Part shown: one piece after another, positions 12,385-31,772 of the stretch
Numbering within the stretch: the stretch's first letter is position 1
Layout of the letters: every line of letters starts with the position of its first letter
Virus record (IMG/VR): IMGVR_UViG_3300025626_000053
Coordinates: 1-37,523 of that record
Source: a virus
DNA: 37,523 nucleotides
Strand: one strand, 5' to 3'
The notes under the pieces: generated by a model
Seen by the model: the letters and a program-made list of their open reading frames with translations, nothing else
Databases searched by the model: none
What the model was told of the DNA's origin: nothing
Program-made: the position numbers and the translations under genes

Positions 12385-12392
12385 ATGTGCGT

Positions 12393-12830
12393 ATGCCATA
12401 TTTCGGTTACAAAGGAAAATATAAACCAAAAAATTACTCTAAGTATGAGGGTGATCCTACCAAGATTATTTATAGAAGTCTTTTAGAACGCAAATTTATG
12501 GTTCATTGTGACAATAATCCAAACATTTTGATGTGGTCATCCGAAGAAGTTATTATACCATATATTTCACCAAAAGACAATAAATATCATCGGTATTTTA
12601 TGGACTTCAAAGTTAAGTATGCGGATAAGAACGGAAAGATTGGCGTTATGCTTATAGAAGTTAAACCATCCTCAAAAACACAAAAACCCAAACCAGCCAA
12701 AAAATCTAAGAGGTACATCGAAGAAGTTTTTGAATGGGGTGTCAACGAAGCTAAGTGGAAAGCGGCAAGTGAGTATTGCAAAGATCGTGGTTGGCAATTC
12801 AAAATAATGACAGAAAAAGAACTCAGGTGA
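12393..12830 (+). CDS. 4: Head completion nuclease-like protein gp4
   Basis: 145 residues from the ATG at 12393 (an in-frame GTG at 12387 is possible; neither has a clear Shine-Dalgarno). It aligns with T4 gp4 over its length: YKPKNYSKYEGDPTKIIYRS versus FVPKNISKYRGDPKKIVYRS, WSSEEVIIPY versus WGSEEVVIPY, then the TnsA-like nuclease residues in YFMDFKVKY and MLIEVKPS (D...ExK), and NEAKWKAASEYCKDRGWQFKI. T4 gp4 completes the packaged head before tail joining. This is the first gene of the plus-strand block. Confidence 0.93.
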   Translation: MPYFGYKGKYKPKNYSKYEGDPTKIIYRSLLERKFMVHCDNNPNILMWSSEEVIIPYISPKDNKYHRYFMDFKVKYADKNGKIGVMLIEVKPSSKTQKPKPAKKSKRYIEEVFEWGVNEAKWKAASEYCKDRGWQFKIMTEKELR

Positions 12831-12845: not shown

Positions 12846-13436
12846 ATGTTGATATTTAAAGAACTAATATATAACGGTGTCCGAGCAGGGCAAGTTCCAG
12901 CAAGAACCAAAGCTGCGAGAACTTGGTTTCGTGATGCCGCATCTCAGGCTTCTGGTGACTTCAGACCGTCTAGTCTTGTTCGTCAGTTTTCGGAAAAACG
13001 GCGCGTGAGTAGACCTGAGCCGGGGTATATGTATTCCTTTAAATATGATCCGAAACACAAAAAAACATTGCCATACTATGATGTATTTCCACTAGTGTTT
13101 GCTGCTGAATTTTATAGTGATGGATTTTTGGGTATAAACTTTCACTATTTACCACTACCGCTAAGAGCTAAACTAATGGATGCACTTTACACAATATCGT
13201 CAGATAAAAGATATGATGATGAAACTAAGATTTTGCTCAGTTATGATATCTTAAAATCGGCATCAAAATTTAAAATGTTTGCCCCGACAGTAAAACGGTA
13301 TCTGTACTCATATGTCAGAACACCATTTTTAGAAATTAATGCTGTCGAGTGGGATATGGCGTTGTTTTTACCTATAGAAAGCTTCAAGAAAGCGTCTGCT
13401 CAAGAAGTTTGGAAAGATAGTCGAGGAAAAATCTAA
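12846..13436 (+). CDS. Conserved T4-like virion-region protein of unknown function
   Basis: 196 residues. I do not recognise a named domain. Conserved-looking features are GYMYSFKYDPKHKKTLPYYD, FPLVF, DGFLGINFHYLPLPLRAKLMD and a C-terminal EWDMALFLPIESF followed by VWKDSRGKI. I remember similar proteins next to gp4 in cyanophages. By position it lies where T4 has the gene 2 (DNA-end protector)/4/53 group, so a head-completion or DNA-end role is possible but unproven. No Shine-Dalgarno precedes the ATG. Its stop overlaps the gp54 start as TAATG. Confidence 0.7.
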   Translation: MLIFKELIYNGVRAGQVPARTKAARTWFRDAASQASGDFRPSSLVRQFSEKRRVSRPEPGYMYSFKYDPKHKKTLPYYDVFPLVFAAEFYSDGFLGINFHYLPLPLRAKLMDALYTISSDKRYDDETKILLSYDILKSASKFKMFAPTVKRYLYSYVRTPFLEINAVEWDMALFLPIESFKKASAQEVWKDSRGKI

Positions 13437-14224
13437 TGGCCTTCGATGATGGTAAAACCGGTTTTTCTCTAAACAGATTTAAATCTACTATACAAGATTT
13501 GGCTAGACCCAATTTATTTGCAGTTAAAGTTGGACGCCCTAATATTTTTAATACCGATAACGCTAGAGCATTTCCTTCTATGGAGTTTGGCGGATCTTCC
13601 TTTACAGGCAGTAATATTTGGGAAGCAATCACCGCTTTTATTCGAGGAGACTGGAGTAACGATGATGTTTTAGCAGGAATAGTGTTTCCTGGCGGTTGGC
13701 CAAGCGAAGTCATCACATGGGCATCTAGTTATGGTGATTACACACGAGATAAGGATATACATTTGGTGTGCGAGGCTGCAGAATTTCCAGGCAAGACAAT
13801 TTCCACAACCGAAGATGCATTGGCGGGACCCTCGTTTACTATGCCATATGATACTGTGTATAACAATGTGACACTTACCTTTTTGGCTAGGAAAAAGATG
13901 TATGAAAGAGCGTTTTTTGATTTGTGGATGGAAGGTATTATTGGTACAGGAACTCCTCAAAACGATTCGGCAAGTGGTATTAATATTAGGTTTCGTGCCG
14001 GAGAAATAAATTATTACGATGATATTCATGCTCCAATAGAAATATTTCAGCTAGACGAAAAATCAAACCAAGTGGCGAGAACTCTTCTAGCAGAAGCATA
14101 TCCAATAGCACTAAGTTCAATGAATTTGAACTGGGATGAAAGAGATACATACCAAAGATTTACCGTGACATTTGCTTATAGATATCATAACGTAGATTAT
14201 GATGATAGTGCGTCACCTTTTTAA
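13436..14224 (+). CDS. 54: Baseplate tail tube initiator gp54
   Basis: 262 residues (T4 gp54 320). The N-terminus (FKSTIQDLARPNLFAVKVGR) has the tail-tube-family start seen in gp54 and gp19. The C-terminus RFTVTFAYRYHNVDYDD parallels T4 gp54 AVFDVTFAYRVMQTG. The central AAEFPGKTISTTE segment matches the tube-protein strand that docks on the next ring. With gp48 it nucleates the tail tube on the hub. A second tube-family gene is not seen in this window, so this is unlikely to be the main tube protein gp19. Confidence 0.8.
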   Translation: MAFDDGKTGFSLNRFKSTIQDLARPNLFAVKVGRPNIFNTDNARAFPSMEFGGSSFTGSNIWEAITAFIRGDWSNDDVLAGIVFPGGWPSEVITWASSYGDYTRDKDIHLVCEAAEFPGKTISTTEDALAGPSFTMPYDTVYNNVTLTFLARKKMYERAFFDLWMEGIIGTGTPQNDSASGINIRFRAGEINYYDDIHAPIEIFQLDEKSNQVARTLLAEAYPIALSSMNLNWDERDTYQRFTVTFAYRYHNVDYDDSASPF

Positions 14225-14248: not shown

Positions 14249-14989
14249 ATGGCTTTACCAAAAATTAAGACACCAACACATGAATTGATTGTTCCTTCAT
14301 CTGGCCTGCCGATGACATACCGGCCTTTCCTTGTTAAAGAGCAAAAGATTTTGCTTATGGCACTGGAAAGTAACGAACAAACAGAAATGATGCGCGCCAT
14401 CAAACAAATCATTGTAAACTGTGTGATCGGTGAAATTGATGTGGATTCGTTACCAATGTTTGATTTGGAATATATTTTCCTACAACTAAGAGCAAGGTCT
14501 GTCGGCGAAACAGTAGATCTAAAACTATCACATTTCGGCGGGAAAAACTCTGATGGTGAAGAGTGCGCAGGGTTTCACCAGTATGAAATTGATTTGACTG
14601 CGATTGAAGTTTATCGAGAAGAAGGGCACGATCCCAAAATCCTTTTGGATGAAGAGTCTGGGATTGGTGTTGTGCTGAAATACCCAACACTCCATATGGC
14701 AGAAGATATTAATGAAGCCGCAGAAAAATCTCAAATAGAAGTTATCACTGATATGGTAGTTACTTGTATTGATGTCATTTTTGATAAGGAAGATGTTTAT
14801 CCTGCGGTAGAATCTTCGCACGACGAACTCACTGCGTTCTTGAACGACTTGTCACAAGACCAGTTTGCAAAAATCACAGATTTTTTTAGTACTATGCCAA
14901 AACTGAAAAAAGACATTGAGTGGAAGTGTACTTTATGCGGAAAAGACGAAACTACTGAGCTGGAGGGAATGGCAAATTTTTTCGGATAA
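14249..14989 (+). CDS. 26: gp26-like baseplate hub / tail assembly protein (T4_baseplate family)
   Basis: 246 residues (T4 gp26 208), with the family N-terminus TPTHELIVPSSGLPMTYRPFL, then VKEQKILLMALES, the IVNCVIGEIDVDSLPMFDLEY segment, and a C-terminal CTLCGKDE pair (one CxxC). A strong GAGGAG precedes the ATG. The last codons (GCA AAT TTT TTC GGA TAA) contain two overlapping canonical -1 slippery heptamers. A slip there removes the stop and continues into the next ORF, giving a product of about 313 residues. With the tape measure gene right downstream, this protein occupies the place of lambda gpG or P2 gpE tail assembly chaperones. Confidence 0.88.
   Translation: MALPKIKTPTHELIVPSSGLPMTYRPFLVKEQKILLMALESNEQTEMMRAIKQIIVNCVIGEIDVDSLPMFDLEYIFLQLRARSVGETVDLKLSHFGGKNSDGEECAGFHQYEIDLTAIEVYREEGHDPKILLDEESGIGVVLKYPTLHMAEDINEAAEKSQIEVITDMVVTCIDVIFDKEDVYPAVESSHDELTAFLNDLSQDQFAKITDFFSTMPKLKKDIEWKCTLCGKDETTELEGMANFFG
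14974..14983 (+). other. Candidate programmed -1 frameshift site at the end of gp26
   Basis: In the gp26 reading frame the sequence reads A-AAT-TTT-TTC. AAATTTT (14974-14980) and TTTTTTC (14977-14983) both fit the X-XXY-YYZ rule for -1 slippage in the correct frame. After a slip, translation reads TTT CGG ATA AGC TTG TCT, entering the small ORF at 14992 in frame with no stop between. A short possible hairpin (TGTC-TCAC-GACA, 14993-15004) lies about 10 nt downstream; it is weak, so I do not rely on it. Confidence 0.65.
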
Positions 14990-14991
14990 GC

Positions 14992-15189
14992 TTGTCTCAC
15001 GACAGTCTTTTGAATCATTATAAAACAAACTTTGCAATGATGCAACACCATAAATACAGCCTAACAGAACTTGATGATATGATGCCGTTTGAAAGAGAGA
15101 TTTATATTGCTCTACTTTCGGAATATGTGAAAAAAGAAAATGAAAGGATAGAAGAACAAAATCGGAAAGCGCAGTCTAAACGACGGTAA
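14992..15189 (+). CDS. Small gp51-position protein; likely the T-like extension of gp26
   Basis: 65 residues if begun at the TTG at 14992, which has no good ribosome site. The only internal ATGs (15037 onward) would remove the conserved-looking start SLLNHYKTNFAMMQHHKYSL. The body is helical and charged (ELDDMMPFEREIYIALLSEYVKKENERIEEQ). It sits 2 nt after gp26 in the -1 frame and 15 nt before the tape measure gene. In cyanophage-type genomes, to my recollection, this position is annotated as gp51, hub assembly catalyst, but T4 gp51 is much larger. Production as a gp26 fusion by -1 frameshifting explains the poor start. Confidence 0.7.
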   Translation: MSHDSLLNHYKTNFAMMQHHKYSLTELDDMMPFEREIYIALLSEYVKKENERIEEQNRKAQSKRR

Positions 15190-15204: not shown

Positions 15205-18200
15205 ATGGCATCTAATTTAGAAAGATTCAGCGGTTACATTGGCGGTAAAGTCAAAGGTGCGGCATCAGATTTTGCCGCAGGCGCAAAAGCCTCTGTGTAT
15301 TCCGCAAATCCCGCTATGTTCGGAGGTATTGAATCTGGTGTTACTGGATTAAAAAATGAGTTTATGCGGGCCCGCAGTGGTGATGAAAAAAGAGCGAGAC
15401 AAGAACGAGCACAAAAAAATCGAGAAAGGGGTTTTCAAGAAGAGCAACGCAACGAACAAAGATATGCTGATGAACAGCAACAAAAAATCTTTAAATCTAT
15501 GGACGATAAGCTCGAACAAATTCTCAAAGCTTTATTAAAAGGTAAGGATGGGGGGGATAGTCTGCTTGGTGGTCTACCACTTTTGGGGTTGGGTTTCAAG
15601 GGCCCAGGCAAAACCCCACCAAGGGTGCCAGGCGTTGATGGTAAAACCCCACCAAGAGTGTCAGACGTTGATGGTAAAAAGCCACCAAGAGTGCCAGACG
15701 TTGATGGTAAAAAACCACCAAAAATTGTAGATCCGGAGCTTAAAAAAATTCGCCTTAGAGGTTTGGGTTTTTTTGATGATATAGTAAAGTCTTTCGAGAA
15801 AATGAAAACTTCTCTGTTCAAGACATCTATAAAATTTCCAGAATTGGAGCGGTACGCCACATCGATGGCCGATGACATGGGTAAATCCGTCAAAGCTATC
15901 GGAGATATGTCGGATAGTATCAAAGCTTCCCGAGAATCTCTCCTAGCAAAATTTGGTCCACAGACTGGGAAAGGCGGTAAAGCTTTATCTGGCGCCGCAT
16001 TAGACAGTCGATTAGGTAAACTTGCCGGTGAAGCAGATAATCTACCAAAACTTATGGAACTGCCGGGCGAAGGCAAGGCTGGCGGCGCGGTAGCCGATGC
16101 GGCGAAAGGTGGAGATATATTAGACAGTATGTCCAAAGCAACCAAAGCATTTTCTGCGGAAGGTGCTATCGGTAAAGTTTTTAAGGGTCTTGCTGTGTTT
16201 GCTGCTGGGATGGGAAAAGCTGTCGCCGGTCCACTAAAACTTTTGGTCGAACTGACTGATATTGGTCAATTTGCAAAAGGGATAGGGAAAGTATTAGGAC
16301 CTATTGGTATTATATTTGGAATCTTTGACGGTTTGATGAATGCTTTGGATACTGAAGGGTTGGCTGAAACTTTAGGCAAAGATGTCGGAAAAATCGGAAT
16401 GCAGGAAAGGATTTCCGGATTCATTGGTGGATTTATAGGAAGCATTGGTGGATTGTTCGATTTGGTTTCCGGTTTGATGGGAATCGAACTCGAAGGCAAA
16501 TCTATACAGAAAAAAATGACCGACACATTCACCAAGTTTTTTGATGATATTTTTGAAGAACTTGGGATCATTTTTAAAGCTGTAGGTGAGTTTTTACAGT
16601 CAGAACCTGTTCAAATTGTTTTTGATTATATCAAGGATATGACCGGAAACTTCATGAAAGGGATTGTGAGCATATTTAAACTTCTTGCTGCGATTGTCAC
16701 TTGGGATGTTGACAAGATGAAATCTGCGGGCATTGATTTGAGCCGAGTGATAACAAACTCATTCAAAGCTCTCGGTAACGTTATAATAGATGCTATAAAT
16801 TATCTGATTAATAAATTTAATGCCTTTGCAGGAACCGATGTAAGAACTATAGACAGATTTGAAAAGTCAGGGGCGGTAGAAGATTGGACGGATCGAGATA
16901 TTGCGGGTTATTTGAGCGACAAAAAAGAAGAATATGACAACGTTGGTCTTAGCCGCAAACTAAGCGAACAGTGGCTGGCCACCAACGAAGCCCTCGTTAC
17001 TAAGTATACTCAGGAAATGGCCGATAGAGGATTTAAGGAAGGAGAAGAAAACCAGCCCAGCTTATTGTCTGGCGATAGAGCGGATTGGGCGATTTTAACC
17101 GGTCAGATTAACAAAGCGCGCCGGGAAATCGAGGCGGCCGAGAAAGAAATATCACTTTTCGACGAACAAGGCCTTTCGGAATCCGAGATTGAAATAAAAA
17201 CCAGATATGAAAATATTATTGCTGAACAAAACAGAAGAGCGGCCGCCGGAGCAGACCCAGTTCCGTCACCGTCGCCAGCAGAGGGTGCAGACCCAGTTCC
17301 GTCACCGTCGCCAGCAGAGGGTACAGAAACATCCGAAGAGGGCACAGAAAAACCACCAGAAGAACAGCCACCAACAAAGGGTGATACTACAGAGCAGACT
17401 GATGCTATAACAACTGCAACGACTGACGTTGGGAATATTATCAACGACGGCAACGTTGAAGCTATGGATAATGCTGCCGAGCTGTCCGAAGCGGAAAGAC
17501 TTCAGCAAGAAGCGTTAGCGGTTGCAAATGCGGACCACCAAGCGAACCTCAATTCTGAAATGCAACGAGCGTACCACGTTGGTGTTGATAGAATGCTTGC
17601 TGGGCAATCGGAACTGATGAGATCTTTGGTTGGACCTTTACTGAAAGGTCAAGGTGGAGAAGAGGGTGGATTCTTATCCAAATTATTTGGTGGTGGTAAA
17701 GAAGGTGGGTTCTTTAGTAAATTCGGGGATTCTCTCGGAAGTTTTTTTGGTAAAGGCACCGGCGGTTGGTTCGATAAGACTACTGGATTCTTTGATGGCG
17801 CTAAAGACCTATTCGGTGGTATCAAAGATACTTTCGGTAGTATTTCTGGTGCGTTTGATGAGCTGTTGGGTGGAGGTGGTAGCGGCACAAATATACTAAA
17901 GACTGCTGGATTTGGCGGATCGTTTAATACCGGAGATCCTCTTGCAAATCTTCTTGGTGGAAAACTAAGCGAAGAACTTGGGTTATCTGGTGTAGGAACA
18001 AACGCTGTAGCAGGCACCCTTAAAAACATTGTTGGTGGTATGGGTGTCGGAAATAGTTTTCGATCGGCGCTTGCGGGACCAGGCGGATTAGCTGGCGGCC
18101 TCGGTGCAGCATTGACTATTGGTAGCGCTGACATAAACACCGTGGGTGGTGCTCTAAGTGGTGGTTTGGGCATATATCAATTACTTAAAGGTGGCGGACT

Positions 18201-20259
18201 GGCCAGCATGCTCGGCGGTGGTATTTCACAGCTGGGTGCTAAGATGACTGCTCAAGCTGCTGCAAACTTTATGGCAGCGAACGCCGGACCCTACTCTTTG
18301 GCATATGCCGGTAAACAAGGAATGTTGGGTGCAGCTGGAAACGCTCTGGGTAACTTTGGTGCTGGTATGGCTGATCCTACCGCATTGTTCGGTAACGGGG
18401 GTATGGCAACCAAACTCGGAGCTGGTGCTGGTGCCGCCGCTTCAGGATTTATGGCAAAAGGTGTTGGGGATTTTGTGAGTGGTGGTTATACGCTCAATAA
18501 ACACTTAACTACTGCTGGAGGCCTCCTTGCTGGAATCGGAGCTACTGGCGCGCTTGGTCCTTTGTTGGCCGCAGGGCCGGCTGGTATTGTTATCGGTGTT
18601 GTTGCGGGATTGGCTAATAGATTGTTCGGCAGAAAGGCAAAAGAATATACTGATGTCGGATTGGACCTAAACATGGGTACCGACACTAGTGGTCAAGTAT
18701 ACAAAGATTGGATTAAAAAGGGCGGAACATATCGTTCAGATAAAAAAGGAACCGAATACGAAGCGTTGGACAGTGAATTGGTATCTTATCTGAATGATTC
18801 GGCAGGAACAATTCAATCCTCGTATGGTAAGTTGGCAGAAACAATGGGATTAAGTGCCGGAGCAATTGTTGGATTTACTAAGTCATATAAGATTTCATTG
18901 GAAGGATTATCTGGTCCAGAACAACAAAAGAAGATTGCCGAATTCGTACAAAAATATGCGGACGATGCAATTAAATCGTCCTACGGTAACGTTTCTAAAT
19001 TTGCACTCGAAGGAGAAAAAACAACCGATACTTTTGTCAGAATGGCATCCGCTACAGAGAATGTTGCATATTGGTTTGATGCATTAGGATACACTGCAGA
19101 AAAAACTAATGATATGTTTAACAAGATGGCAGAGAACGACGGATTGTTCTCTGCTGGCAACGGCATGTTCAACTTCAATTTTGAAGATACCCCTTTCTAT
19201 AAAAATATGATCTCGCAAATTGGCGGCGAGGCGGGGGCTTCTGCCCTAGACTATGAATTTGCTGGGGGTAGGGGTGGACCGAATGGTTACGGGATCGATA
19301 TATATTCCCTTATGAATGCCAGAGCGATGGCCGCTGCAGCCAGCGCCGGCGCCACCCCAGTTGAACCCACAGAAGAACAAAAGAAACTGGCTATTGCAGG
19401 AGCAAAAGCTAATTTTGTTGAGATGTTGGGTGGACAACAAATGTTCGGCAAAACGATGCAAGGATATTTTTCCACGTTCTACTCAAAAGAAGAACAGGCC
19501 GAGTTTATGGCTCGACAAGCCACAATTCAAGCAAAAGCTGCTTTGGATGCTGTGGAAGCAGAACTTGAGAGTTTGTCGGATCAGTTCTCCGAAATTGATC
19601 CTAATGTTGCCGAAAGTCTTGATAACATTAAATCGCAAAAAGAGGTTGATGAGGCGAAAGAGAATTACAGAAAGGCGATTGAATCTGCCATGGAATCTGG
19701 GGATATGGCATTAGCTGCAGAACTTCTTAAGAGTTCTGAGGTGTTTATGCAAGCAGCAAACTTACAGTTGCAAGCTGCAGAAATGAATGGTAACGCAACT
19801 AAAGAACAGGTAGACTTATTTTCTGATATGTCAGAGTTTGGATCTGGTGGTGGTGGTGTCGAGCAGATGAAAGATACTCGCACACTCAACGAAATAGAAG
19901 AGACTGCGCTCGGCCAGATTGTTGGTGGTGGTTTGACCAGCAACAATGTGTCGGCTGGAGAATTTGGTGCCAATGTGGGTTCTGGGGTAGCGGCGTTGGC
20001 CGCCGAAGGTGTGGTTGAAGTTATGAACAATAATTCTGGAACTGGTAGCGCCGACAATCTAGTGGTTGGGGGAACTGCTGTAGAAAATCAGAATGTAATA
20101 AGTTCAAACCCAGCTATCATCGGCAGCAACAACATGACTAGTAATGATGTTATCAACAACGTCAATATAGCTAATGTTGGTGTTAGGGATTTCAACCCTA
20201 TGCTCGCGGTTAACGTTAGGGGAATCACTATGGGTCATATCGGAATAGGTTCTATGTAG
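15205..20259 (+). CDS. Tail tape measure protein (gp29-position)
   Basis: 1684 residues, the longest gene in the window and much longer than T4 gp29 (590). The N-terminus is followed by a charged coiled coil (about 55-115), three 11-residue Pro-rich repeats (136-168), amphipathic helices (200-320), hydrophobic Gly/Ala-rich segments (about 325-420 and 900-1190), an acidic Pro/Thr-rich linker with two 12-residue repeats (683-706), and helical stretches near 1440-1570. The last 60 residues are Asn/Val-rich beta strands. Size, composition and position right after the gp26 pair and before the terminator identify a tape measure. GAGAG precedes the ATG. No lysozyme or peptidase motif was recognised. 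Confidence 0.85.
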   Translation: MASNLERFSGYIGGKVKGAASDFAAGAKASVYSANPAMFGGIESGVTGLKNEFMRARSGDEKRARQERAQKNRERGFQEEQRNEQRYADEQQQKIFKSMDDKLEQILKALLKGKDGGDSLLGGLPLLGLGFKGPGKTPPRVPGVDGKTPPRVSDVDGKKPPRVPDVDGKKPPKIVDPELKKIRLRGLGFFDDIVKSFEKMKTSLFKTSIKFPELERYATSMADDMGKSVKAIGDMSDSIKASRESLLAKFGPQTGKGGKALSGAALDSRLGKLAGEADNLPKLMELPGEGKAGGAVADAAKGGDILDSMSKATKAFSAEGAIGKVFKGLAVFAAGMGKAVAGPLKLLVELTDIGQFAKGIGKVLGPIGIIFGIFDGLMNALDTEGLAETLGKDVGKIGMQERISGFIGGFIGSIGGLFDLVSGLMGIELEGKSIQKKMTDTFTKFFDDIFEELGIIFKAVGEFLQSEPVQIVFDYIKDMTGNFMKGIVSIFKLLAAIVTWDVDKMKSAGIDLSRVITNSFKALGNVIIDAINYLINKFNAFAGTDVRTIDRFEKSGAVEDWTDRDIAGYLSDKKEEYDNVGLSRKLSEQWLATNEALVTKYTQEMADRGFKEGEENQPSLLSGDRADWAILTGQINKARREIEAAEKEISLFDEQGLSESEIEIKTRYENIIAEQNRRAAAGADPVPSPSPAEGADPVPSPSPAEGTETSEEGTEKPPEEQPPTKGDTTEQTDAITTATTDVGNIINDGNVEAMDNAAELSEAERLQQEALAVANADHQANLNSEMQRAYHVGVDRMLAGQSELMRSLVGPLLKGQGGEEGGFLSKLFGGGKEGGFFSKFGDSLGSFFGKGTGGWFDKTTGFFDGAKDLFGGIKDTFGSISGAFDELLGGGGSGTNILKTAGFGGSFNTGDPLANLLGGKLSEELGLSGVGTNAVAGTLKNIVGGMGVGNSFRSALAGPGGLAGGLGAALTIGSADINTVGGALSGGLGIYQLLKGGGLASMLGGGISQLGAKMTAQAAANFMAANAGPYSLAYAGKQGMLGAAGNALGNFGAGMADPTALFGNGGMATKLGAGAGAAASGFMAKGVGDFVSGGYTLNKHLTTAGGLLAGIGATGALGPLLAAGPAGIVIGVVAGLANRLFGRKAKEYTDVGLDLNMGTDTSGQVYKDWIKKGGTYRSDKKGTEYEALDSELVSYLNDSAGTIQSSYGKLAETMGLSAGAIVGFTKSYKISLEGLSGPEQQKKIAEFVQKYADDAIKSSYGNVSKFALEGEKTTDTFVRMASATENVAYWFDALGYTAEKTNDMFNKMAENDGLFSAGNGMFNFNFEDTPFYKNMISQIGGEAGASALDYEFAGGRGGPNGYGIDIYSLMNARAMAAAASAGATPVEPTEEQKKLAIAGAKANFVEMLGGQQMFGKTMQGYFSTFYSKEEQAEFMARQATIQAKAALDAVEAELESLSDQFSEIDPNVAESLDNIKSQKEVDEAKENYRKAIESAMESGDMALAAELLKSSEVFMQAANLQLQAAEMNGNATKEQVDLFSDMSEFGSGGGGVEQMKDTRTLNEIEETALGQIVGGGLTSNNVSAGEFGANVGSGVAALAAEGVVEVMNNNSGTGSADNLVVGGTAVENQNVISSNPAIIGSNNMTSNDVINNVNIANVGVRDFNPMLAVNVRGITMGHIGIGSM
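15610..15708 (+). repeat. Three 33-bp tandem repeats in the tape measure gene
   Basis: Three in-frame units encode KTPPRVPGVDG, KTPPRVSDVDG and KKPPRVPDVDG (residues 136-168), with a degenerate fourth beginning KKPPK. The near-identical DNA (each with CCACCAAG and GTTGATGGT) suggests recent expansion of a Pro-rich spacer. Confidence 0.85.
17251..17322 (+). repeat. Perfect 36-bp tandem duplication in the tape measure gene
   Basis: Two identical 36-bp copies (17251-17286 and 17287-17322) encode ADPVPSPSPAEG twice, at the start of an acidic Pro/Thr-rich linker. Perfect identity indicates a recent duplication and a length-variable region. Confidence 0.9.
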
Positions 20260-31164: not shown

Positions 31165-31241
31165 TGGTCGGGATAGAGAGATTCGAACTCCCGACATCCT
31201 GCTCCCAAAGCAGGCGCGCTACCAGACTGCGCTATATCCCG
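31165..31241 (-). tRNA. tRNA-Pro (UGG anticodon)
   Basis: A complete cloverleaf: acceptor CGGGATA/TATCCCG, anticodon arm CCTGC-TTTGGGA-GCAGG with anticodon TGG, T arm around GTTCGAATC, discriminator A and an encoded CCA (31165-31167). Confidence 0.95.
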
Positions 31242-31697: not shown

Positions 31698-31772
31698 TGG
31701 TGCCCCCAGAGAGATTCGAACTCCCGTCTACGCATTACAAGTGCGTTGCTAAACCAACTCAGCTATAAGGGC
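31698..31772 (-). tRNA. tRNA-Thr (UGU anticodon)
   Basis: A complete cloverleaf: acceptor GCCCTTA/TGGGGGC (two G-U pairs), D arm GCTGAGTTGGTTTAGC, anticodon stem CGCAC-TTGTAAT-GCG region with anticodon TGT, T arm with GTTCGAATC, discriminator A and encoded CCA (31698-31700). Confidence 0.95.

What the first reader, a model, noticed from the sequence alone, without database searches (positions are those of the whole stretch)
14249..15189. Programmed -1 frameshift fusing gp26 to the next ORF, a lambda G/GT-like tail chaperone pair in a T4-like phage
The end of gp26 reads A-AAT-TTT-TTC, carrying two overlapping X-XXY-YYZ slippery heptamers (AAATTTT at 14974-14980, TTTTTTC at 14977-14983) in the gp26 frame. 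A -1 slip bypasses the TAA at 14987 and enters the 65-codon ORF in frame, giving a product of about 313 residues. That ORF lacks an ATG and a ribosome site, which frameshifting would explain. The pair lies 15 nt before a large tape measure gene, exactly where lambda G/GT, P2 E/E' and Mu tail-assembly frameshifts lie. In T4, gp26 and gp51 are hub assembly factors. I know of no report that they form a frameshift pair, though I cannot search.
Basis: partly seen in the sequence, partly recalled or inferred. Interest (0 to 1): 0.85.

Follow-up and report, generated by a model that had tools for sequence, protein, structure and literature searches.

The report
Frameshifted tail chaperone in T4-like phage
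This virus very probably makes two versions of a tail-building helper protein from one gene by making some ribosomes slip back one base at a conserved run of six Ts, a trick already described for relatives of phage T4; here the signal is nearly invariant across distant phages and comes with a conserved ribosome-pairing sequence just upstream.

Summary
gp26 (14249-14989) ends A-AAT-TTT-TTC-GGA-TAA; the -1 frame is open from 14959 to 15189, encodes gp51 (phrog_634, E=1.5e-28), and would give a 313-residue fusion. Of the two heptamers named, conservation supports only T_TTT_TTC (14977-14983): it is in phase before the gp26 stop in 88 of 91 related loci (37 of 40 clusters at 80% identity; about 0.3 expected by chance), while AAATTTT is in 16 of 40. 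In three clusters the -1 frame opens exactly at the T run, which fixes the slip site. Eight clusters have no start codon in the -1 frame near the junction. I also found a conserved Shine-Dalgarno-like GGAGGG 9 nt upstream, and no conserved downstream structure. T4 itself has two divergent genes: short gp26, without the slippery codons, and gp51, which matches the gp26 family over its whole length plus the gp51 domain, colinear with the predicted fusion. So gp26/gp51 works like lambda G/GT. The idea is not new: Vladimirov et al. (Virology 2022) identified T4-like tail assembly chaperones, and a later paper credits them with poly-T signals. The window is a strong new member; the upstream element and exceptions may be new details.

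The parts
14249..14989 (+). gp26-like gene, short chaperone form (TAC-N / 'G'), 246 aa
   Evidence: PF12322 E=3.2e-58, phrog_150 E=2.2e-63
14962..14967 (+). internal Shine-Dalgarno-like GGAGGG, 9 nt before the slippery run; proposed frameshift stimulator
   Evidence: anti-SD duplex -9.8 kcal/mol, none as strong in the sampled background of this gene; mean z -3.6 over 37 clusters; third base of codon 239 (GAG) is the top synonymous outlier of 234 columns, z=6.8
14977..14983 (+). slippery heptamer T_TTT_TTC (slip site)
   Evidence: in phase in 88 of 91 loci and 37 of 40 clusters; -1 frame opens exactly here in 3 clusters
14987..14989 (+). gp26 stop codon (TAA) bypassed by the slip
   Evidence: sequence
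14983..15189 (+). gp51 domain ('T'), -1 frame; 68 residues added to gp26 residues 1-245, product 313 aa
   Evidence: phrog_634 E=1.5e-28; codon-position variation in the -1 frame
15205..20259 (+). presumed tape measure protein gene, 1684 aa
   Evidence: position; partial tblastn similarity to annotated tape measure proteins, E=8e-7 and 3e-3; no profile match naming it so
13436..14224 (+). tail tube protein gene (gp19-like)
   Evidence: phrog_45 E=8.6e-36

Best explanation
gp26 and the downstream -1 frame are one tail assembly chaperone gene with two products. Most ribosomes stop at TAA 14987 and make short gp26 (TAC-N, like lambda gpG). A minority, held by pairing of the internal GGAGGG with the 16S rRNA tail, slip back one base when tRNA-Phe sits on both codons of T_TTT_TTC, and continue to the stop at 15187, making a 313-residue gp26-gp51 fusion (TAC-NC, like gpGT). 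By analogy with lambda, the gp26 part coats the tape measure protein and the minority gp51 domain brings in tube subunits. Shown by sequence: site, phase, conservation, coding of the -1 frame, homology to T4 gp26 and gp51. Inferred: frameshifting in the cell, its efficiency, the role of the SD-like element, and the chaperone function.
For: T_TTT_TTN in phase in 88 of 91 loci; given the amino acids, log10 P about -14 over 37 clusters if treated as independent; codons 243-245 are among the four strongest synonymous outliers of 234 columns. -1 frame open in all 40 clusters, beginning at the T run itself in L065, L088 and L093. Variation is highest at third positions of frame 0 upstream (0.40 vs 0.17/0.15) and at third positions of frame -1 downstream (0.33 vs 0.19/0.07). 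T4 gp51 matches phrog_150 over residues 3-248 (E=2.6e-84) and phrog_634 at its C-terminus, and aligns across the junction. Two-gene phages keep FF or a relic in short gp26 but not TTT-TTC. SD-like element. Gene order as lambda V-G-T-H. Best PDB fold hit is the HK97 tail assembly chaperone 2ob9, though not significant.
Against: No proteomic or reporter evidence exists here. gp26 has no detectable sequence similarity to lambda gpG (hhalign probability 0.4%), and the fold hit is weak (E=0.29). The Ackermannviridae and Vibrio K469 relatives keep the -1 ORF without a canonical heptamer. Some relatives (Cr30, YB07, PVA8, K469) have an ATG overlapping the gp26 stop, so reinitiation could contribute there. 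No conserved downstream structure (mean z +0.21). The clusters are related, so the P value is too small.
Confidence: 0.93

Rival explanations
1. Termination-reinitiation: ribosomes ending gp26 restart in the -1 frame at a nearby start codon, giving a separate small gp51.
For: Annotators list gp51 as a separate CDS. Cr30, YB07, K469 and PVA8 have an ATG overlapping the gp26 stop.
Against: The window has only TTG (14992, 15010) before the ATG at 15037, which lies inside the conserved domain. Eight of 40 clusters have no ATG, GTG or TTG up to 45 nt past the stop. It does not explain the nearly invariant T_TTT_TTN or the gp26-gp51 fusion in T4.
Confidence: 0.04
2. Transcriptional slippage: RNA polymerase adds or drops U in the T run, and the fusion is read from altered mRNA.
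For: A homopolymer run is conserved; a few relatives have runs of 7 or 8 T.
Against: The run is 6 T in most, and the second Phe codon is TTC in 31 of 37 clusters against 12.7 expected, so selection keeps the run short. Slippage by bacterial RNA polymerase usually needs about 9 or more (general knowledge). The fixed codon phase and SD-like element are not predicted.
Confidence: 0.02
3. The Phe-Phe motif is conserved for the protein and the T run is a by-product of AT-rich codon use.
For: FF ends gp26 in most families, including T4 gp26 (GLKEFFELL). Background TTT use for Phe is 65%.
Against: All 37 clusters use NNT-TTT before the second Phe (41% expected each), even ones with few TTT codons (Xanthomonas X1: 2 of 12). 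Where T4-type gp26 keeps FF it is encoded TTC-TTT, without the heptamer.
Confidence: 0.01

Closest known systems
Tail assembly chaperones of T4-like phages (Vladimirov, Gautam, Davidson 2022, Virology 566:9-15)
   Same: Short and long forms of a chaperone in T4-like phages; some carry a short gene and a long fused gene (PMC10885494), with poly-T frameshift signals in TAC-N genes (PMC12846349).
   Different: Full text was not held, so lineage coverage and details could not be compared.
Lambda gpG / gpGT
   Same: Gene order tube - G - T - tape measure, -1 phase, slip near the end of G, C-terminal extension.
   Different: Lambda slips at G_GGA_AAG (sequence), here at T_TTT_TTC; no sequence similarity.
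T4 gp26 and gp51
   Same: Same families; T4 gp51 is colinear with the predicted fusion.
   Different: T4 makes the two forms from two divergent genes, without a slippery site.
Vandenendeviridae TAC locus (phage Adele, PMC12846349)
   Same: Conserved poly-T -1 signal at the end of TAC-N and an uninterrupted -1 frame.
   Different: The motif reported there is GTTTTT, in a different phage family.
dnaX-type -1 frameshift signal of E. coli
   Same: SD-like element about 10 nt upstream of an X_XXY_YYZ heptamer (from general knowledge).
   Different: dnaX also uses a downstream stem-loop (general knowledge); none is conserved here.

Membership tests
T4-like tail assembly chaperone (gp26/gp51) | N-terminal part belongs to the gp26 family | tested here: met
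   PF12322 E=3.2e-58; phrog_150 E=2.2e-63
T4-like tail assembly chaperone (gp26/gp51) | C-terminal part belongs to the gp51 family | tested here: met
   phrog_634 E=1.5e-28
T4-like tail assembly chaperone (gp26/gp51) | Short and long forms from frameshift or duplicate genes | tested here: met
   Sequence evidence for the frameshift; products not observed
Programmed -1 frameshift, X_XXY_YYZ type | In-phase slippery heptamer conserved in relatives | tested here: met
   88 of 91 loci
Programmed -1 frameshift, X_XXY_YYZ type | Downstream stimulatory RNA structure (common, not obligatory) | tested here: not met
   Mean z +0.21 over 39 clusters
Programmed -1 frameshift, X_XXY_YYZ type | Upstream SD-like stimulator (optional) | tested here: met
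   Mean z -3.6 at offset -15
Programmed -1 frameshift, X_XXY_YYZ type | Fusion product made in cells | not testable with these tools
   Needs mass spectrometry or a reporter
Lambda G/GT | Location between tail tube and tape measure genes | tested here: met
   Tube 13436-14224; presumed tape measure 15205-20259 with partial similarity to annotated ones; lambda order
Lambda G/GT | Detectable homology to gpG | tested here: not met
   hhalign probability 0.4%; HK97 chaperone is the best fold hit but not significant

The most novel reading that the evidence does not exclude
The T4-like chaperone frameshift is a two-part signal: T_TTT_TTC plus an internal Shine-Dalgarno-like element 9 nt upstream, kept under synonymous selection across the T4 supergroup. 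The slippery codons were lost when T4-type phages duplicated the gene, and are replaced in Ackermannviridae and some Vibrio phages by an N_NTT_TTY site that lacks the canonical heptamer.
Probability: 0.6. Interest if true: 0.5.

Novelty: new member of a known kind. Interest (0 to 1): 0.4.

Why it matters
T4 was long listed as the exception to the G/GT frameshift (Atkins et al. 2016, PMC5009743: conserved in long-tailed phages 'except T4'), and gp51 as an essential hub protein of unknown function (PMC3004832). The data here independently support that T4 relatives do frameshift and that T4 uses two genes instead, giving gp26 and gp51 a concrete role to test. It also means the gp51 CDS in many cyanophage records is probably wrongly annotated as a separate, truncated gene.

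Tried and rejected
AAATTTT as the slip site: in only 16 of 40 clusters. Downstream stem-loop or pseudoknot: the 70 nt after the site are no more folded than other windows (mean z +0.21); pseudoknots were not modelled; Rfam gave only one below-threshold chance match. Sequence link to lambda gpG: none. Fold link to the HK97 chaperone: best hit, but E=0.29, so only suggestive. NCBIfam had no useful match. Tape measure identity by profile or by pairwise comparison with Cr30 and S-PM2: none; partial tblastn similarity to annotated tape measure proteins was found. The short -1 ORFs of L027, L028 and L046 are contig ends, not stops. The 2022 Virology paper could not be read; its content is taken from its title and from papers citing it.

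Full report
The observation. The window is a virus fragment from IMG/VR. gp26 runs 14249-14989 and ends ATG GCA AAT TTT TTC GGA TAA. The -1 frame is open from 14959 to 15189 and has no ATG until 15037. gp26 matches PF12322 (E=3.2e-58) and phrog_150; the -1 ORF matches phrog_634, 'baseplate hub assembly catalyst' (gp51), at E=1.5e-28, and also the C-terminal end of phrog_150, whose profile therefore extends into the gp51 domain. A slip at T_TTT_TTC gives 245 + 68 = 313 residues.

Related loci. Seventy-eight of the 80 IMG/VR loci returned hold the end of gp26 and were read; in every one a T_TTT_TTN heptamer stands in phase 7-13 nt before the gp26 stop, and the -1 frame runs on about 60-70 codons unless the contig ends. 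Annotated phages extend this to S-PM2, syn9, P-SSM7, S-CREM2, Caulobacter Cr30, Stenotrophomonas YB07, Aeromonas phiWae14, Xanthomonas X1 and the Straboviridae phage PVA8. Overall 88 of 91 loci counted have it; the three without it are Vibrio K469 and two Ackermannviridae.

Chance. Clustered at 80% protein identity there are 40 groups, 37 with the heptamer. In-phase T_TTT_TTN occurs at 12 of 9331 other gp26 codon positions, so about 0.3 of 40 clusters would have it in the last five codons by chance. Given the amino acids, the preceding NNT and first TTT have joint probability 0.41 per cluster, or about 10^-14 over 37 clusters, an overstatement because clusters are related. In a synonymous test of 234 columns the four strongest outliers are codons 239, 245, 243 and 244. 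The second Phe is TTC in most (third base C in 31 of 37 clusters against 12.7 expected), so the T run is held at six.

Which heptamer, and where. AAATTTT is present in 16 of 40 clusters only. In L065, L088 and L093 the -1 frame opens exactly at the T run, and within 3 nt of it in L054, L075 and L086, so the shift must happen there. Variation is concentrated at third positions of frame 0 before the site and at third positions of frame -1 after it.

Stimulators. An SD-like GGAGGG at 14962-14967 lies 9 nt before the T run. Its predicted pairing with the 16S tail is -9.8 kcal/mol, stronger than anything in the sampled background of the gene, and across 37 clusters the anti-SD pairing peaks at that distance (mean z -3.6). 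The Glu codon there is GAG far more often than expected (22 clusters with third-base G against 6.8). In the window no start codon in the -1 frame stands at a suitable distance behind it (first TTG at 14992), so it is unlikely to serve initiation of gp51. This resembles dnaX, where an SD-like element about 10 nt upstream stimulates -1 shifting (general knowledge). No conserved structure downstream was found.

T4 as a natural control. In T4 and 44RR, 26 and 51 are divergent neighbours. T4 gp26 and gp51 both match PF12322 along its length; gp51 also matches phrog_150 over residues 3-248 (E=2.6e-84) and phrog_634 at its C-terminus, and aligns without a break across the predicted frameshift junction of the one-gene phages. 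In the two-gene phages examined, short gp26 keeps GLKEFF or a relic, but where the Phe pair is kept it is TTC-TTT, not TTT-TTC. So the slippery codons go with the one-gene form, not with the protein motif.

Exceptions. Ackermannviridae end GAG/GAA ATT TTC ATT TAA, with the -1 frame opening as little as 10 nt before the stop; K469 ends ACG CTT TTT GCG TAATG. Both keep a Phe codon TTY after a T (N_NTT_TTY), which may allow slippage as in phage T7 gene 10 (from memory), but the mechanism there is open and K469 could reinitiate.

What it works like. The order tube - gp26 - gp51 - presumed tape measure matches lambda V-G-T-H. An AlphaFold model of gp26 (mean pLDDT 87.7) gives the HK97 tail assembly chaperone as best PDB hit, not significantly; there is no sequence similarity to lambda gpG. 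It therefore works like G/GT, while homology to lambda G is not shown.

Novelty. PMC10885494 cites Vladimirov, Gautam and Davidson 2022 for T4-like phages that carry a short TAC gene and a long fused one, and PMC12846349 credits the same paper with poly-T signals in TAC-N genes of T4-like phages. The paper itself is not held. The window is thus a new member of a known kind; the SD-like element and the Ackermannviridae variant may be new, but that could not be checked.

Noticed in passing
window 14962-14967: Conserved internal GGAGGG (SD-like) 9 nt upstream of the slippery run; its Glu codon is the strongest synonymous outlier in gp26.
   Followed up: yes
L090, L094-L108 (Ackermannviridae); L087 (Vibrio K469): gp26 relatives that keep the -1 gp51 ORF but lack a canonical heptamer (ATT TTC ATT TAA; CTT TTT GCG TAATG).
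   Followed up: partly
window 14881-14887: A second in-phase TTTTTTT inside gp26; slipping there meets TAG at once in the -1 frame and would give a truncated product.
   Followed up: no
window 15205-20259: The presumed tape measure gene (1684 aa) has no profile match naming it so, but stretches within residues 1138-1324 resemble tape measure proteins of Acidovorax phage Aval and Vibrio phage P23.
   Followed up: partly
window 12387-12830: Head closure (gp4-like) protein that matches the TnsA-like endonuclease domain PF08722.
   Followed up: no
window 31165-31241 and 31698-31772, minus strand: tRNA-Pro(TGG) and tRNA-Thr(TGT) genes; no tRNA-Phe.
   Followed up: no
L082, L083, L085, L092 (S-PM2, syn9, Cr30, P-SSM7): gp51 is annotated in public records as a separate, N-terminally truncated CDS of varying start.
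   Followed up: partly
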